Positions 29,854 to 38,147 of a stretch of DNA of 60,277 bases are shown here, in pieces (position 1 is the first letter of the stretch; each line of letters opens with the position of its first letter). Under the pieces are notes generated by a model. The model had not been told where the DNA came from, did no database searches, and saw only the letters and a list, made by a program, of their open reading frames with translations. The stretch spans positions 1 to 60,277 of the forward strand of contig JAJZQO010000008.1 of the NCBI GenBank assembly GCA_021847575.1, read 5' to 3'. The stretch comes from Bacillota bacterium. Lineage in GTDB: Bacteria; Bacillota; Sulfobacillia; JAJZYS01; JAJYTV01. Made by a program: the position numbers and the translations under genes.

Positions 29854-30642
29854 GACGCTCTGTCTGAAGATGCCTTCGCTCCTCGCCACCGCAAGGGAGC
29901 GCAGGATGGCCGAGGGTGGGATGGTCGGCGCGAGCGCCCTGAGGTGGGGCAGCTCGCGCCGCTCGCTTTGCGTGCGGAGTTGCCACAGGCCGAGGTCGAT
30001 GCGCCGCAGGAGGCCTGTAACAAGGAGCGGATCGCGGCGCACCACCGAAGTGCGCGCGTAGACGAGGCAAGTGGGGTACGGGCCCAGCTCGTCGGCGAGC
30101 GGCTGCGCCAGATGCGCCTCGCCTTTGGCCACCAGCAGGCTCGCGAGCGGCTCGGGGGCCAGCAGAAAGCCGGCGCGGTCTGAGCGGAAGGCCCGCACGC
30201 CGCCCGCGGCGGGCGTCACCTGCGGCAGCTTGTCGAGGATGCCGCGATAGCGGGCGACTGCGATCTCGAGGGTGCGTGCGTCGGTGCCCGGCGCGAGATA
30301 GAGCGGCGCCTTGCCGAAGTCCTGCCAGGAGAACAGGCCGCCGCCATGCCAGAGCAGGGTTTCGGGCGATGTGCGGCAGATCGCGCCGACGACGGTGAAG
30401 CCCTGCCGCGTGAGACGGGGCAGATCGGTCGAGGCGGCGATCAGCAGCGGGGCGGCAAGCCCTTTCGCTCCGCGGCCTGCCAAAATCGTGGGGGGATCGC
30501 CCTGGTCGAGCAGCAGCGGCGCGATGGCGATCGGAGCGCCCAGGTTGCCGAGGGGTACGGCCGGGATGTGCGGCACCGTCGCGCCGCACGCAGCGAGCAG
30601 GAGCGCGGCGGCGACGGCCGCAAGGCCTGCGCGGCGCGTCAT
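29734..30642 (-). CDS. Lipoprotein resembling ABC-transporter substrate-binding proteins
   Basis: The 302-residue product has a type II signal peptide with lipobox LLAAC (Cys about residue 20), so it should be membrane-anchored outside the cell. The mature part resembles SsuA/THI5-type (NMT1-like) binding proteins: a first lobe with IAIAPLLLDQGDPPTILAGRG, SxxFTVVGAI-like strands and YLAPGTDARTLEIA, then a hinge. No ABC permease or ATPase gene is adjacent. Its start overlaps the stop of the SpoVB-like flippase gene (ATGA), so it is the second gene of that operon. The family assignment is moderate. Confidence 0.68.
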   Translation of the reverse strand: MTRRAGLAAVAAALLLAACGATVPHIPAVPLGNLGAPIAIAPLLLDQGDPPTILAGRGAKGLAAPLLIAASTDLPRLTRQGFTVVGAICRTSPETLLWHGGGLFSWQDFGKAPLYLAPGTDARTLEIAVARYRGILDKLPQVTPAAGGVRAFRSDRAGFLLAPEPLASLLVAKGEAHLAQPLADELGPYPTCLVYARTSVVRRDPLLVTGLLRRIDLGLWQLRTQSERRELPHLRALAPTIPPSAILRSLAVARSEGIFRQSVLLGELDLRTLHDEIAPGAWPDSALDLGPARAALRRPFVP

Positions 30643-32153
30643 AGGGTGCTGAAATTGCGCCGACCGCCGCCCAAGGCGAGCAGCAGCACAGCGTAGAGCA
30701 GAGCGCCCAGACCGATGGCGGCGAGCGTCGATACCCAGAGAGTGGCGCCGAGGCGCATCAACAGGCCCTCCCACATGCGCAGGCTGAAGAACAGGACGAG
30801 CCCCGCGACAAGTGGCGGCACGACCAGCCGGCGCAGGTCGGCGGCGTATCCCGTCACGCGACAGAGCGAGCGGTAGTTGAGCCAGAACGAGATGAACAGG
30901 TCGACGCCGATCGCCAGAAGGACGGCACGGATGCCGAAGCCGGGCAAGGGCGTGAGCGTCCAGACCAGGACGAGACGCACCGCAGAGCCCAACAGGCCGT
31001 TCGTCATGGCCAGGGCGGCGCGCCCAAGGCCGCGCAGCACGGCCGAGACGCTCGCCTCGAGGTAGACGAACGGCGCGGCGAAGGCGAGCGGCACCAAAAG
31101 ATCGCCGACCTGCCGCTGGCCGTAGAAGAGAATGCCGAGGAGGTGCCCGAACACGATGAAGACGGCGCTCGTCGGCACGGCCACGACGAGCGCGATGTAG
31201 ATCGACTGGGCGATGCGCCGGCGCACGAGGGCGAGATCCTGGCGCGCGTAGGCGTCCGACACGGCGGGCACGAGAGCCTGGCTCAAGGCGTAGGAGATCA
31301 CCGTGGGAAAGAAGACGAGCGGCATTGCCATGCCGCCGAGGTTGCCGTAGAAGGCGGTGGCCGCGTCCCGGGTCAGGCCGGAGACCACCAGCCGGCGAGG
31401 GATGATCGTCGCGTCGAGGAACTCCGTCAGGCTGCCGATGACGCGCGTCACGCTGATCGGCAATGCCTGGCCGAGCAACTCGCGCAGTGTCGAGTCGCGG
31501 ACGGCCGGAGGCAGCGGCGTGGGCGCAGGCCCGCCCCGCATCAGGTACGCAAGCCAAAGGATGAGCAGGCCGCAGAGTTCGCCGAGCACCATGCCGCCCG
31601 CCGCCGCCACTGTCATCGCGGCGAGGCCCTGGTGCTGGAAACGGTCGATCAGCCACAGCGCGCTGCCGATGCGGACGATCTGCTCGACGACCTGGCCGAC
31701 GGCGGAGGGAGCCATGCGCTGCAGGCCCTGGAAGTAGCCGCGGAGCACCGACGAGACCGCGACGATGGTGAGGAGCGGCATCAGCGCGGTGAGCGGTGCG
31801 ACCGCACGCGGGTCCGCGAGCACGTGATTCTCGAGAAAGCGCAGACTGAGCGCGAGGATCACCGTGGCGACGAGGCTCAGCACCAGCACGAAACGCAGGG
31901 AGGTCCGCAGCACTTCGCGCACGCGGCCTGGGTTCAGCGCAGCACGTTCCGCGACGATCTTCGAGACGGCCACTGGCAGGCCCGCGGTCGCGGCGGTGAT
32001 CGCAACGTGCAGCACGGGGAAGGCGTAGCCGAGGAGGCCCATGCCCTGGCTGCCAAGTCGCTGCGCGAGCAGGATGCGGTAGAAGAAGCCGAGCACACGG
32101 TTGATCAGACCCGCGCCGAACAGGGTGAGGGTGCCTTGCGTGAGAGCGCCCAC
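30639..32153 (-). CDS. Polysaccharide flippase / stage V sporulation protein B family
   Basis: The 504-residue integral membrane protein has about 14 hydrophobic helices and belongs to the MOP (MATE/PST) superfamily, close to SpoVB/MurJ-like lipid-linked sugar flippases. The N-terminal GALTQGTLTLFGAGLINRVLGFFYRILLAQ and LPVAVSKIVAE are typical of the SpoVB group. GTG 32153 is chosen because GGGAGG lies 11 nt upstream and the hydrophobic core starts there; the open frame upstream is unlike the family. In Bacillus SpoVB acts in cortex synthesis; here the role is inferred. The downstream lipoprotein gene overlaps by 4 bp. Confidence 0.85.
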   Translation of the reverse strand: MGALTQGTLTLFGAGLINRVLGFFYRILLAQRLGSQGMGLLGYAFPVLHVAITAATAGLPVAVSKIVAERAALNPGRVREVLRTSLRFVLVLSLVATVILALSLRFLENHVLADPRAVAPLTALMPLLTIVAVSSVLRGYFQGLQRMAPSAVGQVVEQIVRIGSALWLIDRFQHQGLAAMTVAAAGGMVLGELCGLLILWLAYLMRGGPAPTPLPPAVRDSTLRELLGQALPISVTRVIGSLTEFLDATIIPRRLVVSGLTRDAATAFYGNLGGMAMPLVFFPTVISYALSQALVPAVSDAYARQDLALVRRRIAQSIYIALVVAVPTSAVFIVFGHLLGILFYGQRQVGDLLVPLAFAAPFVYLEASVSAVLRGLGRAALAMTNGLLGSAVRLVLVWTLTPLPGFGIRAVLLAIGVDLFISFWLNYRSLCRVTGYAADLRRLVVPPLVAGLVLFFSLRMWEGLLMRLGATLWVSTLAAIGLGALLYAVLLLALGGGRRNFSTL

Positions 32154-32501
32154 GTTTGATCGAGCCTCCCGCAAAAGGCCTATGGCCTGGCGGGGACGAA
32201 CATGCCGCTCGTCTTGCGCTTGGCGCCTTTCGGAGGTTTCTGCCACGGGACGAACGAGGCCGTATGGAAGAGCGTGCAAGCTCCGAGGAAGCGTCTACCC
32301 AGCTTGGCCTGCCATGGCATGCGAGGACAACCGGTCGATGACACCCTGACCAAGATTGGAAGGTGATCGCGAGCGGCTCGAGGCCCCCGGGACTTTGGTC
32401 CCAGGACTTTCGATCCAGCGCAACGGCGCTTCCGCGGAGACTTTCGGCACTGGCGTCAAGATCCGTGCGGCCCTATCTTTGCTCAAAAGGAGGGTTGCAC
32501 G
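32154..32501. other. Divergent intergenic region with regulatory repeats
   Basis: About 350 bp between the divergent flippase and 4Fe-4S membrane protein genes. No gene is seen. It holds three GACTTT-containing elements described separately and a weak candidate promoter TGGCGT-17-TATCTT (32451-32479) just before the redox operon. Confidence 0.5.
32389..32450 (+). promoter_or_regulatory. DosR-box-like palindromes upstream of the redox operon
   Basis: GGGACTTTGGTCCC (32389-32402) matches 13 of 14 positions of the core of the mycobacterial DosR box (GGGACTWWAGTCCC). A degenerate copy AGGACTTTCGATCC (32403-32416) follows directly, and a third, GAGACTTTCGGCAC (32437-32450), abuts the candidate -35. 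The operon encodes a DosR-like regulator, so autoregulation is likely. The binding assignment is inference; the palindrome is directly visible. Confidence 0.6.
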
Positions 32502-33992
32502 ATGGCCGTTTGGCCCAAAGACCCTGACCCGGGAGCATTGCAGGCGCATTTTGCGCCGACCGATCCGGATCCGCGGCGCGAGATTACGCGCACCCCTTGG
32601 GTGCGCCGGGTGATCAAGAGTCGCGCTTTTCAGTTCTTACTCATCCTGCCGAACCAGATTATCTTCTGGATTGTTATCACGGCAGGCCTTTTTGGCGTCG
32701 CCGCACCCACACGCAATTTCTCGACGGTGATCACCTGGTACATCTGGTTCTGCGCGGTCTTCCTCCTGATGGTCGGCATCGGGCGCGCCTGGTGCGCCAT
32801 GTGCCCCTTCGGTGGCTTCGCGGAGTGGATCCAACGCCGGACCTTCTGGCGACGCAATCCGACGAGCATGACACTGGGACGCCGCTGGAGCCAGAAGCTG
32901 AGCCGCTACGGGCTTCTGCCGTCGGTGCTCTTGTTCATCATCCTCACCTACTTCGAAGAGTACTTCAACATCGCAGGTCCGGGGGTGCCGCGCTACACGA
33001 GCTACCTCGTGCTCTCCGTCATCACCATCGCCCTGATCTCCTTCCTCGTTTTGGAGCGGCGGAGCTTCTGCCGCTATCTCTGCCCGCTTTCGGCCCTGAT
33101 CGGCACGGTCGGGGCAACCGGTATGGTCACCGGCTTCCGTACGCGCAACCGCTCGGTATGCTTGGAGTGCAAGACCAAGGACTGCATGCGCGGCAGCGAA
33201 AAGGGCTATCCCTGCCCCTGGTTTGAATGGCCAGGTAGCGCCACATCGAACCTGATGTGCGGACTTTGCTCCGAGTGCTTCAAGAGTTGCCCGTCCGACA
33301 ACATTGGGCTCTACGTGCAAAAGCCGCTCACATCCGTGATCCGGCCGCTGCGGCGACGCTGGGACGTTGCCGTCGCGGTGATCCTGCTGATGGGACTGGT
33401 CGTGTTCCAGCAGCTGAACGCCCTCCCAGTCTACGCAACGGTCGACAACTGGCTGAACGCGGTGACGCACTACCCGGGCTACCCGAACCCGATCGACTAC
33501 ATCATCGCCATCGCAACCGTTGCAGGCATCGTGGTCGGCTACGTCCTTCTGATCAAGAAGGGATTCGCCGACCATGAGAAGGAGCACGACAGCACACTTT
33601 CGCAGTGGCTGACGCCGGTGGGCTACGGCCTGATCCCGCTCGTCGCCGCCGACTATCTCGCCCGCCAGCTACCGCGCTTCTTCGACCACATGTTGCGCAT
33701 CGTACCCGCGCTTTCCGACCCCTTCGACGTCGGCTGGAACCTCTTCGGCACAGCCAAGTCGCCGCTCTACGGCGTGCATCTGCTCTCGACCGCGGGTGTC
33801 GTGCGCAGCCAGTCGATCGTGATCGCCGTTGGGGCTTTGGCCTCGATCTATGCGACCTGGCACATCAGTCGCCGTGACTTCGGCAGCCTCACGAAGCGGG
33901 TTTCAGCGGTTCAGTTCGCAGGCGTCCTCTTGAGCGCGCTGATCGGCGTGGCGATGGTCTGGCTCTACGTGGCCATGGCTGGAGCGGAGTGA
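32502..33992 (+). CDS. Polytopic membrane protein with 4Fe-4S cluster motifs (NapH/NosR/CcoG-like)
   Basis: The 496-residue protein has about eight or nine membrane helices and four cysteine clusters: CAMCPFGG (98-105), CRYLCPL, CLECKTKDC and CGLCSECFKSCP. Paired CxxCP-type and ferredoxin-type motifs flanked by helices are characteristic of the NapH/NosR/CcoG-like group, which pass electrons between the quinone pool or flavoproteins and other acceptors. The ATG at 32502 follows AAAGGAGGG. It is the first gene of a four-gene unit with a ferredoxin-flavoprotein and a two-component system. The physiological acceptor is unknown. Confidence 0.83.
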   Translation: MAVWPKDPDPGALQAHFAPTDPDPRREITRTPWVRRVIKSRAFQFLLILPNQIIFWIVITAGLFGVAAPTRNFSTVITWYIWFCAVFLLMVGIGRAWCAMCPFGGFAEWIQRRTFWRRNPTSMTLGRRWSQKLSRYGLLPSVLLFIILTYFEEYFNIAGPGVPRYTSYLVLSVITIALISFLVLERRSFCRYLCPLSALIGTVGATGMVTGFRTRNRSVCLECKTKDCMRGSEKGYPCPWFEWPGSATSNLMCGLCSECFKSCPSDNIGLYVQKPLTSVIRPLRRRWDVAVAVILLMGLVVFQQLNALPVYATVDNWLNAVTHYPGYPNPIDYIIAIATVAGIVVGYVLLIKKGFADHEKEHDSTLSQWLTPVGYGLIPLVAADYLARQLPRFFDHMLRIVPALSDPFDVGWNLFGTAKSPLYGVHLLSTAGVVRSQSIVIAVGALASIYATWHISRRDFGSLTKRVSAVQFAGVLLSALIGVAMVWLYVAMAGAE

Positions 33993-34031: not shown

Positions 34032-36002
34032 TTGGCACTGCTTGAGGTGAAAGTCAACCGGGACACCGAGCGTCGGGTGGTGGTAGACAAGGAGCGCTGC
34101 GCTGGCTGTCGCGAGTGCATCGTGCGCTGCCCCGTTGGGGCGCTTGATCTGGACGTGTCAGACTGGGTGTGCGCCCCTCGCGGCGAGGACTGCGTTGGCT
34201 GCCGGACCTGCGAGCGCACTTGCCCCTACGGTGCCATCGAGGTTACCGGGCCGGCCCGGGTTGCGTCGCCCGTCGAGGTCGGGACCGTACCGGTGGAAGA
34301 GCACCTGCGGCACTCCACCGTCGAGGTGCACCCTGGACTCGCTGGCTGGGATGAGGCCATCGCCGAGGCGGAGCGGTGCCTCGGCTGCCCTGATCCGACC
34401 TGCCGTCTCGGCTGCCCTGCCCACAACAACATCCCTAGCTTCATCGAGGCGATCCGCGGCCGGGATCTCGCCCGCGCCCATGAAATCCTGCGCCAGACCA
34501 CGCTCTTTCCGGACATCTGCAGCCGCGTCTGTGACCAAAGCAGCCAGTGCGAGGGCGCCTGCGCCTGGAATCTTGCGGGCAGCGAACCCGTGCGCATCGG
34601 CCTCCTGGAGCGCTTTGTGGCCGATATGGCGCCGGTGCCGCCGGTGGTCCGGCCGAAGCGCCAGATCGGTCTGTCGGTGGCGGTGGTCGGCGCAGGACCG
34701 GGAGGACTCGCAGTGGCTTGGGATCTACTCCAGGAGGGCGCGGAGGTCGTCGTCTACGAGCGCGAGGCGAAGCCGCTCGGGGTCCTGGAGTGGGGCATTC
34801 CTGAGTTCACTCTGCCTGACGCGGTGGCCGAGCGGCCCGTGCGGGCGCTGGAAGAGGCCGGGCTGCGCATCGTCACGGGTGTCGAGGTCGGGCGCCAGAA
34901 GTCTCTGCAGGCACTGCTCTCGGACCACAACGCGGTCGTCTTCGCCCACGGGGCGTCGCTGCCGCTACCGCTGCAGGTAAAGGGGGCGGACGCTGTGCGC
35001 GTCGAGGACGCGACGACCTTCCTGCGGCGCGCCAAGGATGCGTTGCGTCAGCGCACGGAACTTGTGGACGTCCACCCGGGCGCGAAGGTCCTCGTCATTG
35101 GAGCGGGCAACACGGCGATGGACGTCGCGCGTAGCGCGCGCCGGTTCGGGGCTGACGTACTCGCGGTGGAGTGGATGGACCGGCGCTTCGCAAAGGTCCG
35201 TCCCGACGAACTCGAACAGGCGGAGCGCGAGGGCGTGCGGATCCGCTTCAACACGACGGTACAGGCGCTGGAACCCGGGTGGGGCGAGCTCTTCAGCGCG
35301 CGGCTCGGCAAGACTAGGCAGAAGAGCGCCCAGGACCGGCCGGAGGTGCTTTCGAGCCCTCCGGAAGAGGTCGGGCTGATCCAGCTCGTTGTGGTGGCCA
35401 TGGGCTACCGCGTCGACGCCACCCCGATCTCGGACCTCAAGGCCGCGCTGCCGCTTCGGAGGGAGAATTCTCCCGCGTTCCGCGATCGTCGGCTTATGGC
35501 GACCGGGCTGCCGCAGGGATCCGAGGCGATGGCACGGCGAGTCGAGGAGCGCACTGCGGCTGTCGAGCGTGCGCAGCGCCCGATCGCACGGCAAGTCTAC
35601 GCGGTGGGGGACGCCCTCACAGGTCCAGCGACCGTGGTGGCGGCCATGGCCCAGGGCAGGGCGGTTGCTCGGGCGATCGCGGGCGAGTGGCGGCGCGGCG
35701 GCCTGCGCCAGACCTCCGCAGCCGCGTTGCGGGTGGCGCCCGCACGAGCCGACGCGCCGGCTCAGTTGGAGAAGGCCGCAGTCGGGCCACTGCGCATGAC
35801 TAGCCTTGCACTGCTGGGCATGGGCTTCGTGTTCTGCCTCACGGTGGTAGGCTTCATGGCTGGAGCCCTGCTGATTGCCTCCGGCGCATTCCTGCTGCTG
35901 TTGGACATTCTCGGTCGCTGGGTGCACCATGGATTGCAAAAGCTCGGCGAGTCGCCGCAGGAAGCAGAGATCCCGGCGCTCGGTCGGGGCCTGCGCACCT
36001 GA
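34032..36002 (+). CDS. Ferredoxin-GltD-like FAD/NAD(P)H oxidoreductase with C-terminal membrane segments
   Basis: The 656-residue protein is a fusion. Residues 20-70 carry two [4Fe-4S] motifs (Cys23/26/29/33 and Cys54/57/60/64). Residues about 112-200 are the glutamate-synthase small-subunit-like cluster domain (CLGCPDPTCRLGCPAH; CSRVCDQSSQCEGAC). Residues about 210-570 contain the FAD fold VAVVGAGPGGLAVAWDL, the NAD(P) fold VLVIGAGNTAMDVAR and the closing VYAVGDALTGPATVVAA. Two hydrophobic segments (about 588-630) end the protein, an addition not found in GltD. TTG 34032 follows GAGGGAGGGAA. It probably exchanges electrons between NAD(P)H and the adjacent membrane iron-sulfur protein. Confidence 0.85.
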   Translation: MALLEVKVNRDTERRVVVDKERCAGCRECIVRCPVGALDLDVSDWVCAPRGEDCVGCRTCERTCPYGAIEVTGPARVASPVEVGTVPVEEHLRHSTVEVHPGLAGWDEAIAEAERCLGCPDPTCRLGCPAHNNIPSFIEAIRGRDLARAHEILRQTTLFPDICSRVCDQSSQCEGACAWNLAGSEPVRIGLLERFVADMAPVPPVVRPKRQIGLSVAVVGAGPGGLAVAWDLLQEGAEVVVYEREAKPLGVLEWGIPEFTLPDAVAERPVRALEEAGLRIVTGVEVGRQKSLQALLSDHNAVVFAHGASLPLPLQVKGADAVRVEDATTFLRRAKDALRQRTELVDVHPGAKVLVIGAGNTAMDVARSARRFGADVLAVEWMDRRFAKVRPDELEQAEREGVRIRFNTTVQALEPGWGELFSARLGKTRQKSAQDRPEVLSSPPEEVGLIQLVVVAMGYRVDATPISDLKAALPLRRENSPAFRDRRLMATGLPQGSEAMARRVEERTAAVERAQRPIARQVYAVGDALTGPATVVAAMAQGRAVARAIAGEWRRGGLRQTSAAALRVAPARADAPAQLEKAAVGPLRMTSLALLGMGFVFCLTVVGFMAGALLIASGAFLLLLDILGRWVHHGLQKLGESPQEAEIPALGRGLRT

Positions 36003-36028
36003 CCTTGGCGGCGAAAGGCCGATGCCCA

Positions 36029-37453
36029 ATGCACAGTGGTCGACCTGAAGCCAAGACGACCCCGGCCGCGAGCGCGCGGCCGGGGCGCGTCAGTGTCATC
36101 GCACGGATCAAATGGGCCATGATCGTCTTGTTGGCCTTGGTGGAGATCGGCTTTGACTTCTGGATCGAACCATGGTTGCGCGTCGCGACGGCCTGGGAGG
36201 AGTTCGTGGAACGCTACATGGCGGTGGTCGAGGCGGTCGCCATGGGCTCGATCATATATGTGGTCTTTTCGCAGATTGAGCGCCTCGAGCACCAGCTTGC
36301 ACTGCGCCAGCAGGAGCTCGGCCGACTCTATGAGGCAGCCAGCCGATGGGACGAGCAGCTCGAGGCTCTACACCGGGCGTCGGTGGACATAGCGCGCGAG
36401 GGAACCTACCAGCAGTTGCTGGGCCGTATCGCCGCTCTGGCGGCGGAACTCAGCGGTGCGACCTACAGCGCGCTCGCAGAGTTCGACGAGGCGCAGCGCG
36501 TCGTCTCGTTCGTGACCTACGGGGTGTCGGAGGGCGTGCAGGAGGCGATTGGGCGGCCGCCGGACCACCGCGGCCTGCTCGCCCGCCTCTCCGGCACGCA
36601 ACCGGTGCGCATCGACGACGTGACGCACGCGGCCGGCTACACAGGCTTTCCTGCGGGCCATCCGCAGTTCCGCGCCTTCCTCGGTGTGCCGATCCGCTGG
36701 GAGGGTGAACTGCTTGGACACCTCTATCTCGGCGGCCAGGAGGACAGGGCGGCCTTCAGCCCGTCCGACGAGCGCCTGCTGCAGATGTTCGCGGTCCAGG
36801 CGGCCATCATCATCGTGCGCGAGCGGGTGGCCCGCGCCTACGCGGGCCAAGTGCGGCGCAGCGAGCGCCACGAGATCGAGGTGGAGTTGCACGATCGCGC
36901 CCTGCAGGGGCTCTACGCCCTCGGCATCCAGTTGCAGCGCGCTAAGGGTCACGGTCTCGCCGCGCTCACCGACACCATGAGCGTGGATCTCGCGATCGAG
37001 GCGGTGCAGCGCTCGATGGTCGCGATCCGCGACGTCCTCGACGCATTGGAGCGCGATGCGCCGGGCAGCGCCGCCGAGGCGCTGCGCGCCGAGGCCGAGG
37101 GTGTGGCGCGGCTTTACGGCATGACGGTGCTCTGGCGCTGCGTCGAGCTTGCGGAGCGTCTGCCGGAGCACTGGATCCCAAAGCTCGCGCAGGTCGTCCA
37201 CGAGGCGGTCGCGAATGCTGGCCGCCACGGGCAAGCGCAGCAGGTGCAGGTCGAACTCAGCATTGTGGACGGCGTGTTCTCCCTCAGCGTCGAGGACGAT
37301 GGCACCGGTTTCTCCGCGCAGGAGGTAAAGGAAGGTCACGGCATGGTAAACGTGCGCCGAAGCGCACTCGATCTCAGCGGAACGGCGACGCTCTCCTGCT
37401 CGCGTTCCGGGGGGGCGCGGCTTGAACTGCGGCTGCCGTTCCCCACCGCGTGA
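36029..37453 (+). CDS. GAF-domain sensor histidine kinase (DosS/NarX-like)
   Basis: The 474-residue kinase has two membrane helices (about 27-46 and 63-82), a coiled coil, one GAF domain (about 122-265), a HisKA_3-type dimerisation domain with probable phospho-His288 (ELHDRALQGLYALGIQLQ) and a HATPase domain (HEAVANAGRHG; VEDDGTGF; GHGMVNVRRSA). The GAF segment FPAGHPQFRAFLGVPIRWEG resembles the heme-binding GAF-A of mycobacterial DosS/DosT, with His211 in the region of their heme ligand. Gas or redox sensing is therefore plausible but unproven. ATG 36029 is used; TTG 36005 is an alternative. It is followed 31 bp later by its response regulator. Confidence 0.87.
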   Translation: MHSGRPEAKTTPAASARPGRVSVIARIKWAMIVLLALVEIGFDFWIEPWLRVATAWEEFVERYMAVVEAVAMGSIIYVVFSQIERLEHQLALRQQELGRLYEAASRWDEQLEALHRASVDIAREGTYQQLLGRIAALAAELSGATYSALAEFDEAQRVVSFVTYGVSEGVQEAIGRPPDHRGLLARLSGTQPVRIDDVTHAAGYTGFPAGHPQFRAFLGVPIRWEGELLGHLYLGGQEDRAAFSPSDERLLQMFAVQAAIIIVRERVARAYAGQVRRSERHEIEVELHDRALQGLYALGIQLQRAKGHGLAALTDTMSVDLAIEAVQRSMVAIRDVLDALERDAPGSAAEALRAEAEGVARLYGMTVLWRCVELAERLPEHWIPKLAQVVHEAVANAGRHGQAQQVQVELSIVDGVFSLSVEDDGTGFSAQEVKEGHGMVNVRRSALDLSGTATLSCSRSGGARLELRLPFPTA

Positions 37454-37484: not shown

Positions 37485-38147
37485 ATGATCCGGCTGGTCA
37501 TCGTCGACGATCATGAGGTGGTGCGGGTCGGGCTTGCGTCGCTGCTGCGCGACGATCCGGAGTTCTCGGTGGAGGCGATGGCCGCCACCGCCGAGGACGG
37601 GCTGCGGGCGGTGCGTAACGCGCAGCCGGACATCGTCGTGCTGGATCTGCGTCTGCCGGACCGTCCGGGACTCGAGATCGTGCCGGAGATCCGGCGTAGC
37701 GTGCCAGGCAGCAAGATTGTCGTCCTGACCTCCTACGGCGAGGATCAGGCCATGATCGCCGCTGTCGCCGCGGGGGTCGACGCCTTTCTCACCAAAACTG
37801 TGGACAGCGAGGCGCTCTGCTCTGCGATCCGCAACGTCGCTGCAGGCAGGCAGGTGCTGCGCGACCAGGTGGCGGACGCCCTCGTGCGTTACGTGCGCCA
37901 GGGTGACGTAGCCTCGCACTCGGAGGCAGATCCCGACGCCTTGACGCCGCGGGAGAGGGAGGTTGCCGAGGCGGTCGCGCTCGGGCTGAGCAACCGCGAG
38001 GTGGCGGAGCGCCTGGGCCTCGCGGAAAAAACGGTGAAGAACCACGTCAGCGACATCCTGGCCAAGTTCCGTCTATCGCGGCGCGCCCAGATTGTCGCCT
38101 TGTTCCGCGCGGGCGAAGGACGACCGGGGGACGGCTTCCGGCGCTGA
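37485..38147 (+). CDS. NarL/FixJ-family response regulator, DosR-like
   Basis: The 220-residue protein has a receiver domain with acidic pocket Asp8/Asp9, phospho-acceptor Asp54 (VVLDLRLPD) and LTSYGE, followed by a LuxR-type helix-turn-helix (LTPREREVAEAVALGLSNRE, then LAEKTVKNHVSDILAK). The last motif and the receiver text VDDHEVVRVGL are strikingly like mycobacterial DosR (LAEKTVKNYVSRLLAK; VDDHEVVRRGL). The ATG at 37485 follows GAGGGGGAGA. It probably binds the palindromes upstream of the operon. Confidence 0.9.
   Translation: MIRLVIVDDHEVVRVGLASLLRDDPEFSVEAMAATAEDGLRAVRNAQPDIVVLDLRLPDRPGLEIVPEIRRSVPGSKIVVLTSYGEDQAMIAAVAAGVDAFLTKTVDSEALCSAIRNVAAGRQVLRDQVADALVRYVRQGDVASHSEADPDALTPREREVAEAVALGLSNREVAERLGLAEKTVKNHVSDILAKFRLSRRAQIVALFRAGEGRPGDGFRR

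What the first reader, a model, noticed from the sequence alone, without database searches (positions are those of the whole stretch)
34032..36002. Ferredoxin-GltD-like flavoprotein with C-terminal membrane helices
Standalone GltD-like proteins are soluble. This one adds two N-terminal [4Fe-4S] motifs and two C-terminal hydrophobic segments, and sits beside a polytopic 4Fe-4S membrane protein. Together they could form a membrane-bound NAD(P)H:acceptor or reverse electron-transfer module.
Basis: partly seen in the sequence, partly recalled or inferred. Interest (0 to 1): 0.65.

Follow-up and report, generated by a model that had tools for sequence, protein, structure and literature searches.

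The report
Undescribed membrane NADH electron-transfer pair
A gene pair found in iron-cycling, acid-loving bacteria and their uncultured relatives appears to encode an undescribed membrane device that passes electrons between NADH and the respiratory membrane; its parts are familiar, but this combination and its task are not known.

Summary
Window 34032-36002 encodes a ferredoxin domain (8 invariant Cys), an NfnL/GltD-like core with two more [4Fe-4S] sites, FAD and NAD sites, and a C-terminal helical hairpin. The hairpin is 80% conserved against the nearest relative (core 69%, linker 27%), so it is selected. The 4Fe-4S membrane protein upstream (P0002, 32502-33992) is the constant partner: in 77 of 77 testable homologous loci (Bacillota, Chloroflexota, Dormibacterota, Actinomycetota) the flavoprotein follows it directly. 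The tail is not constant: it is absent in many lineages and replaced by a flavodoxin domain in Actinomycetota. The NADPH-binding 'YRR' of GltD/NfnL is [D/E]-W-[M/L] in nearly every homologue, so NAD(H) is predicted. The bifurcation arginine R201 of NfnL is Thr/Ser, which argues against Nfn-type bifurcation. A DevS-like sensor kinase and a NarL-type regulator complete a putative four-gene operon. I read it as a quinone-linked NAD(H)/ferredoxin-flavodoxin oxidoreductase; direction, acceptor and energy coupling are unshown. It is a new combination of known parts, not found in the papers searched. It falls below the curated cut-offs for NapH and GltD and lacks defining features of Nfn and Rnf.

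The parts
32502..33992 (+). P0002: polytopic 4Fe-4S membrane protein, 496 aa, constant partner of the flavoprotein; AAGGAGGG ribosome-binding site before the ATG
32622..33311 (+). NapH-like part of P0002 (residues 41-270): four TM helices, CX2CP (C98, C101), CX3CP (C190, C194), then C220/C223/C228/C238 and C253/C256/C259/C263; all invariant in 56 homologues
   Evidence: Pfam Fer4_5
33360..33977 (+). Extra C-terminal membrane domain of P0002 (residues 287-492, about five TM helices), conserved DYLARQLPxFxxH motif; no Pfam domain and no PDB fold match
34032..36002 (+). P0001: membrane-anchored ferredoxin-NfnL/GltD-like flavoprotein, 656 aa (the reported finding)
34074..34250 (+). N-terminal 2x[4Fe-4S] ferredoxin domain (residues 15-73)
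   Evidence: Fer4_7, E 4.6e-11; 8 invariant Cys
34350..34631 (+). Fer4_20 (DPD domain II) two-cluster domain (residues 107-200); Glu193 in the position of NfnL's Glu cluster ligand
   Evidence: E 1.5e-32; invariant Cys and Glu
34668..35687 (+). FAD- and NAD(H)-binding Rossmann domains (residues 213-552); Thr260 replaces NfnL Arg201, Arg390 matches Arg333
35169..35177 (+). E380-W381-M382: family signature [DE]W[ML] at the end of beta-2 in the second Rossmann fold, where GltD/NfnL have YRR; predicts NAD(H) specificity
35787..35951 (+). C-terminal transmembrane helical hairpin (residues 586-640)
36005..37453 (+). P0003: sensor histidine kinase (TTG start at 36005 or ATG at 36029); DevS/DosT-type GAF domain with His219, H-box His296
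37485..38147 (+). P0004: NarL-type response regulator (receiver + GerE)

Best explanation
P0002 and P0001 form a two-subunit, membrane-bound, NAD(H)-linked oxidoreductase. P0001 exchanges a hydride with NAD(H) at its FAD, carries single electrons through two Fer4_20 [4Fe-4S] clusters to its N-terminal dicluster ferredoxin domain, and from there to the cytoplasmic [4Fe-4S] pair of P0002. P0002 connects this wire to the quinone pool in the membrane, as NapH does for NapG. The C-terminus of P0001 is an accessory: a membrane hairpin that anchors it (this lineage), a fused flavodoxin domain that adds a low-potential carrier (many Actinomycetota), or nothing. The pair would let cells without Rnf balance NADH, ferredoxin/flavodoxin and quinol, with expression controlled by oxygen/NO/redox sensors (DevS-like kinase + NarL regulator here, Rrf2 elsewhere). 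Shown: domains, ligands, adjacency, hairpin conservation, substituted NADPH motif, regulator neighbours. Inferred: NADH specificity, complex formation, quinone as membrane acceptor, regulation, physiological role. The net direction of electron flow is not determined.
For: Adjacency P0002->P0001, same strand, in all 77 testable loci of 80 from at least four phyla and in every relative's genome that has both genes on one contig. All 16 Cys and Glu193 of P0001 invariant in 40 homologues, all 12 Cys of P0002 invariant in 56. Closest structures are NfnL proteins (4ylf_B E 6e-105; 5jca_L TM-score 0.85). [DE]W[ML] replaces YRR. Hairpin predicted and conserved. Flavodoxin fusion in Actinomycetota. RnfD/NqrB family absent in 20 of 20 genomes with the pair, while 19 of 20 have 2-oxoacid:ferredoxin oxidoreductase. 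Two-component or Rrf2 regulators beside the pair. NapH is proposed to oxidise quinol and pass electrons to NapG (PMC5928378).
Against: No biochemical data. P0002 has no solved relative by sequence or fold and its C-terminal membrane domain is unknown, so quinone binding is analogy only. Its first motif is CX2CP, not the CX3CP of NapH/NosR. Complex formation was not modelled. Distant relatives of P0002 (about 450 aa) in other Bacillota have no such flavoprotein nearby, so the membrane protein can work with other partners.
Confidence: 0.5

Rival explanations
1. Uphill electron transport in acidophilic iron oxidisers: electrons from Fe(II) reach the quinone pool and P0002-P0001 uses the large proton gradient to push them to NAD+ (or flavodoxin/ferredoxin).
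For: The one named cultured member, Ferrithrix thermotolerans, is an acidophilic iron oxidiser (PMC8790237). Sulfocyanin (SoxE) is in all 15 genomes of the window's order and in 18 of 32 other genomes with the pair. A cytochrome b gene pair lies near the module in Dormibacterota and some Actinomycetota.
Against: The host has three NuoF loci; complex I, if complete, could run in reverse. No RuBisCO in the host and only 4 of 23 genomes searched have one, including Ferrithrix. 14 of 32 genomes with the pair lack SoxE, and three genomes of the order have SoxE but no pair. No ion-pumping domain is recognised in P0002. Co-occurrence is confounded by shared ancestry.
Confidence: 0.2
2. Flavin-based electron bifurcation like Nfn: the FAD of P0001 splits NADH electrons between a low-potential branch (ferredoxin domain/flavodoxin) and a high-potential branch (P0002/quinone).
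For: Closest homologue is the bifurcating NfnL subunit. The Glu cluster ligand (E193) and the Arg333 equivalent (R390) are kept. The flavodoxin fusion would suit a low-potential product.
Against: Arg201, described as hydrogen-bonding FAD N5 and crucial for bifurcation (PMC10482914), is Thr/Ser in 38 of 40 homologues and Arg in none. No NfnS-like gene adjoins the pair here. Four clusters of P0001 form one plausible chain with no obvious second branch.
Confidence: 0.12
3. The pair exports cytoplasmic electrons across the membrane to an extracytoplasmic acceptor or reductase (for example for Fe(III) reduction), like NosR or flavinylated NapH-like systems.
For: NapH-like proteins carry electrons across membranes in several systems (PMC8238504). 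Ferrithrix and related acidophiles reduce Fe(III) anaerobically (PMC8790237). Regulation looks oxygen- or redox-responsive.
Against: P0002 has no FMN-binding domain. No secreted reductase, FMN-binding or cytochrome c gene was seen to recur beside the pair; the recurrent neighbours identified are regulators and, in some groups, cytochrome b.
Confidence: 0.15
4. An ordinary soluble GltD-like enzyme whose hydrophobic tail and neighbour are incidental.
For: Many homologues lack the tail.
Against: The tail is more conserved than the core, the neighbour is present in 77 of 77 testable loci, and scores lie far below GltD cut-offs.
Confidence: 0.03

Closest known systems
[quoted passage not shown]
   Same: Same Fer4_20-FAD-NAD(P) core, Cys pattern, Glu cluster ligand and Arg333 equivalent
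   Different: Extra N-terminal dicluster ferredoxin domain; [DE]W[ML] in place of YRR; Thr/Ser in place of Arg201; membrane tail or flavodoxin domain; partner is a membrane protein
NapH / NosR / RdhC (PceC) membrane 4Fe-4S proteins (Pfam Fer4_5)
   Same: Membrane core with two short Cys-Pro motifs, and two cytoplasmic 4Fe-4S motifs as in NapH/NosR (PMC5928378)
   Different: First motif CX2CP; about five extra C-terminal TM helices; no FMN-binding domain; far below the NapH cut-off
'NapH-like' flavinylated electron-transfer systems (PMC8238504)
   Same: Fer4_5 membrane protein moving electrons for a variable partner
   Different: No FMN-binding domain found in P0002 or in the neighbours scanned; partner is a cytoplasmic NAD(H) flavoprotein
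Rnf complex
   Same: Proposed role: membrane link between NAD(H) and a low-potential carrier
   Different: No homologous membrane subunit in 20 genomes with the pair
DevS/DosT sensor kinases (2vzw, 2y79)
   Same: P0003 GAF domain aligns over its length with the His of the HPxxRxFLGVP motif kept
   Different: One GAF domain preceded by hydrophobic segments; haem binding untested

Membership tests
NapH (TIGR02163) / NosR-type membrane ferredoxin | Score above the curated NapH cut-off | tested here: not met
   32.9 bits against 213.05
NapH (TIGR02163) / NosR-type membrane ferredoxin | Two CX3CP motifs | tested here: not met
   One CX2CP (C98, C101) and one CX3CP (C190, C194), invariant in 56 homologues
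NapH (TIGR02163) / NosR-type membrane ferredoxin | Two cytoplasmic 4Fe-4S motifs after four TM helices | tested here: met
   C220/223/228/238 and C253/256/259/263 after four predicted TM helices
NosR / flavinylated NapH-like system | Extracytoplasmic FMN-binding domain, in the protein or a neighbour | tested here: inconclusive
   Absent from P0002 by Pfam and none seen among scanned neighbours; not every neighbour was scanned
Bifurcating Nfn (NfnL) | Two Fer4_20 [4Fe-4S] clusters, one with a Glu ligand | tested here: met
   Cys and Glu193 invariant
Bifurcating Nfn (NfnL) | Arg201 at FAD N5 | tested here: not met
   T 32, S 6, V 1, I 1 of 40 homologues
Bifurcating Nfn (NfnL) | NfnS partner subunit in the operon | tested here: not met
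   Window neighbours are P0002, a sensor kinase and a response regulator
GltD, glutamate synthase small subunit (TIGR01316/01317/01318) | Score above the curated cut-off | tested here: not met
   257.8, 176.0 and 206.1 bits against 471.75, 447.7 and 482.95
GltD, glutamate synthase small subunit (TIGR01316/01317/01318) | NADPH-binding YRR at the end of beta-2 | tested here: not met
   [DE]W[ML] in 72 of 73 homologues scored (the other DWV)
Rnf | RnfD/NqrB-type membrane subunit | tested here: not met
   PF03116 absent in 20 of 20 genomes with the pair; P0002 matches only Fer4_5
DevS/DosT-type haem GAF sensor kinase (P0003) | GAF domain with proximal haem His | tested here: met
   E 3.4e-23 to 2vzw, His219 aligned in HPxxRxFLGVP; that this His is the haem ligand is from general knowledge
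DevS/DosT-type haem GAF sensor kinase (P0003) | Binds haem and senses O2, NO or CO | not testable with these tools
   Needs spectroscopy

The most novel reading that the evidence does not exclude
P0002-P0001 is a minimal, Rnf-independent energy-coupled complex: the unknown five-helix membrane domain of P0002 lets the proton gradient drive electrons from NADH or quinol to ferredoxin/flavodoxin (or the reverse), giving low-pH bacteria a two-subunit counterpart of Rnf.
Probability: 0.12. Interest if true: 0.85.

Novelty: new variant of a known kind. Interest (0 to 1): 0.55.

Why it matters
The pair is fixed together across at least four phyla, at least partly in acidophilic iron-cycling bacteria, yet eight literature searches found no description. 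It is a candidate for how cells without Rnf connect NADH, ferredoxin/flavodoxin and quinone, a question raised by reverse electron flow at low pH. It also shows a modular flavoprotein whose C-terminus is either a membrane anchor or a flavodoxin, and a membrane domain with no known fold relative.

Tried and rejected
Nitrogenase link: true nifH in only 1 of 20 genomes. CO2-fixation link: RuBisCO in 4 of 23, none in the host. Strict iron-oxidation marker link: SoxE in 18 of 32 genomes with the pair outside the order, and its correlation inside the order is confounded by kinship. Fold search for P0002: no match below E 0.001. Wider relatives of P0002 in Bacillota: the A4 profile finds no P0001-like gene in 18 neighbourhoods, so they form a different subfamily. 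Promoter scan found nothing above shuffles. Literature searches found no paper describing the pair; most subscription papers are not in that library.

Full report
Observation. The ORF at 34032-36002 (+) encodes 656 aa with the order ferredoxin dicluster (Fer4_7) - Fer4_20 - FAD/NAD(P) Rossmann pair - hydrophobic tail. AlphaFold2 (40 homologues, pLDDT 87) predicts the tail as two helices, 586-602 and 608-640. Against the nearest relative (L070) the tail keeps 44 of 55 residues, the core 381 of 552 and the linker 9 of 33; 22 of the 44 identical tail residues use changed codons. The tail is therefore selected, not chance.

Neighbourhood. Genes 32502-33992, 34032-36002, 36005-37453 and 37485-38147 lie on one strand with short gaps and ribosome-binding sites, so I treat them as an operon; no transcript data exist. 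P0003 is a sensor kinase whose GAF domain is closest to DevS/DosT (E 3e-23) and keeps the HPxxRxFLGVP histidine. P0004 is NarL-type. The flanks are a lon-like protease, a GTP-binding protein and a MurJ/MATE-like flippase upstream, and a glyoxalase-like protein, a valyl-tRNA synthetase and a folC-like gene downstream (read; flippase and glyoxalase by Pfam).

Conservation. In 41 related genomes P0002 homologues occur in 14, strong ones almost only in the window's order plus G030; where the contig allows, the flavoprotein is adjacent, and one genome has two copies of the pair. A scan of one genome per species gave 80 loci from Bacillota, Chloroflexota, Dormibacterota and Actinomycetota, with two labelled Acidobacteriota that group with Actinomycetota in the tree; the only named isolate is Ferrithrix thermotolerans. 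In 77 loci the flavoprotein follows P0002 on the same strand; in the other three the contig ends. The A1 profile also finds distant 450-aa relatives of P0002 in other Bacillota; none of 18 neighbourhoods inspected has a P0001-like gene. The pairing therefore marks a subfamily.

The variable end. P0001 homologues come in three forms: no tail (Chloroflexota, most Dormibacterota, Ferrithrix, some Bacillota), a TM hairpin (the window's order) and a flavodoxin domain (many Actinomycetota) (Pfam Flavodoxin_3/Flavodoxin_1 in L104). The tree gives 9 changes in all, clustered by lineage (a few rows cut by contig ends were counted as 'none', so some changes are artefacts).

Residue signatures. The best solved relatives are NfnL proteins. 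In the second Rossmann fold the NADPH-contacting YRR of NfnL is [DE]W[ML] in 72 of 73 homologues and DWV in the other; an acidic residue here normally selects NAD(H) (established rule, inferred for this protein). Glu193, at the NfnL Glu-ligand position, and Arg390, at Arg333, are kept. Thr260 stands where NfnL has Arg201: T 32, S 6, V 1, I 1 of 40. Arg201 is described as crucial for bifurcation (PMC10482914; PMC12921514), so classical Nfn bifurcation is disfavoured though not excluded.

Membrane partner. P0002 has four N-terminal TM helices with CX2CP and CX3CP motifs, two cytoplasmic 4Fe-4S motifs, and about five further TM helices with no Pfam domain or PDB fold match. Related NapH is proposed to oxidise quinol and pass electrons to a ferredoxin partner (PMC5928378); NapH-like systems with flavinylated partners are surveyed in PMC8238504, and that work does not describe an NAD(H) flavoprotein partner of NapH-like proteins in the passages read.

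Genome context. The host has three NuoF loci and two sulfocyanin loci. All 15 genomes of its order have sulfocyanin and 12 of them have the pair; 18 of 32 genomes with the pair from elsewhere have sulfocyanin, Ferrithrix not among them. RnfD/NqrB is absent from 20 of 20 genomes with the pair, and 2-oxoacid:ferredoxin oxidoreductase is present in 19 of 20. True nifH occurs in 1 of 20; RuBisCO in 4 of 23 and not in the host.

Interpretation. The evidence fits a two-subunit membrane oxidoreductase wiring NAD(H), through FAD and a chain of clusters, to a NapH-like membrane protein. Quinone as the acceptor, the direction, and any coupling to the proton gradient are inference. Reverse electron flow remains a real rival. 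Acidophily of most source organisms is suggested by lineage but was checked only for Ferrithrix (PMC8790237).

Novelty. Each part belongs to a known superfamily. The combination, the [DE]W[ML] signature, the swappable tail and the extra membrane domain were not found described in the open library searched. I classify it as a new variant of a known kind.

Noticed in passing
L104:11519-13720 and many other Actinomycetota loci (L094-L149): Homologues of the flavoprotein carry a C-terminal flavodoxin domain where the window protein has its membrane hairpin.
   Followed up: partly
G000:C58:62995-65233 and G000:C125:8898-11970: Two other GltD-like paralogues in the host genome lie within about 1.5 kb and on the same strand as 2-oxoacid:ferredoxin oxidoreductase genes.
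   Followed up: no
L155-L172 (for example L171:7755-9146): Distant 450-aa relatives of P0002 in other Bacillota lack the flavoprotein; at least one sits beside a YtkA-like protein. Their function looks unknown too.
   Followed up: partly
L104:13730-14641 (-), L129:9266-9775 (-): Rrf2-family regulators with three conserved cysteines sit beside the pair in Actinomycetota; in L104 the Rrf2 domain is fused to a Polyketide_cyc2 (SRPBCC) domain.
   Followed up: partly
L096:13274-14817 (-), L088:18273-19999 (+), also L076-L080, L087, L100, L124, L125: A short cytochrome b gene and a following membrane protein with no Pfam match recur within about 7 kb of the pair in Dormibacterota and some Actinomycetota.
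   Followed up: partly
window 30642-32279 (-): MurJ/MATE-like polysaccharide flippase immediately upstream on the opposite strand.
   Followed up: no
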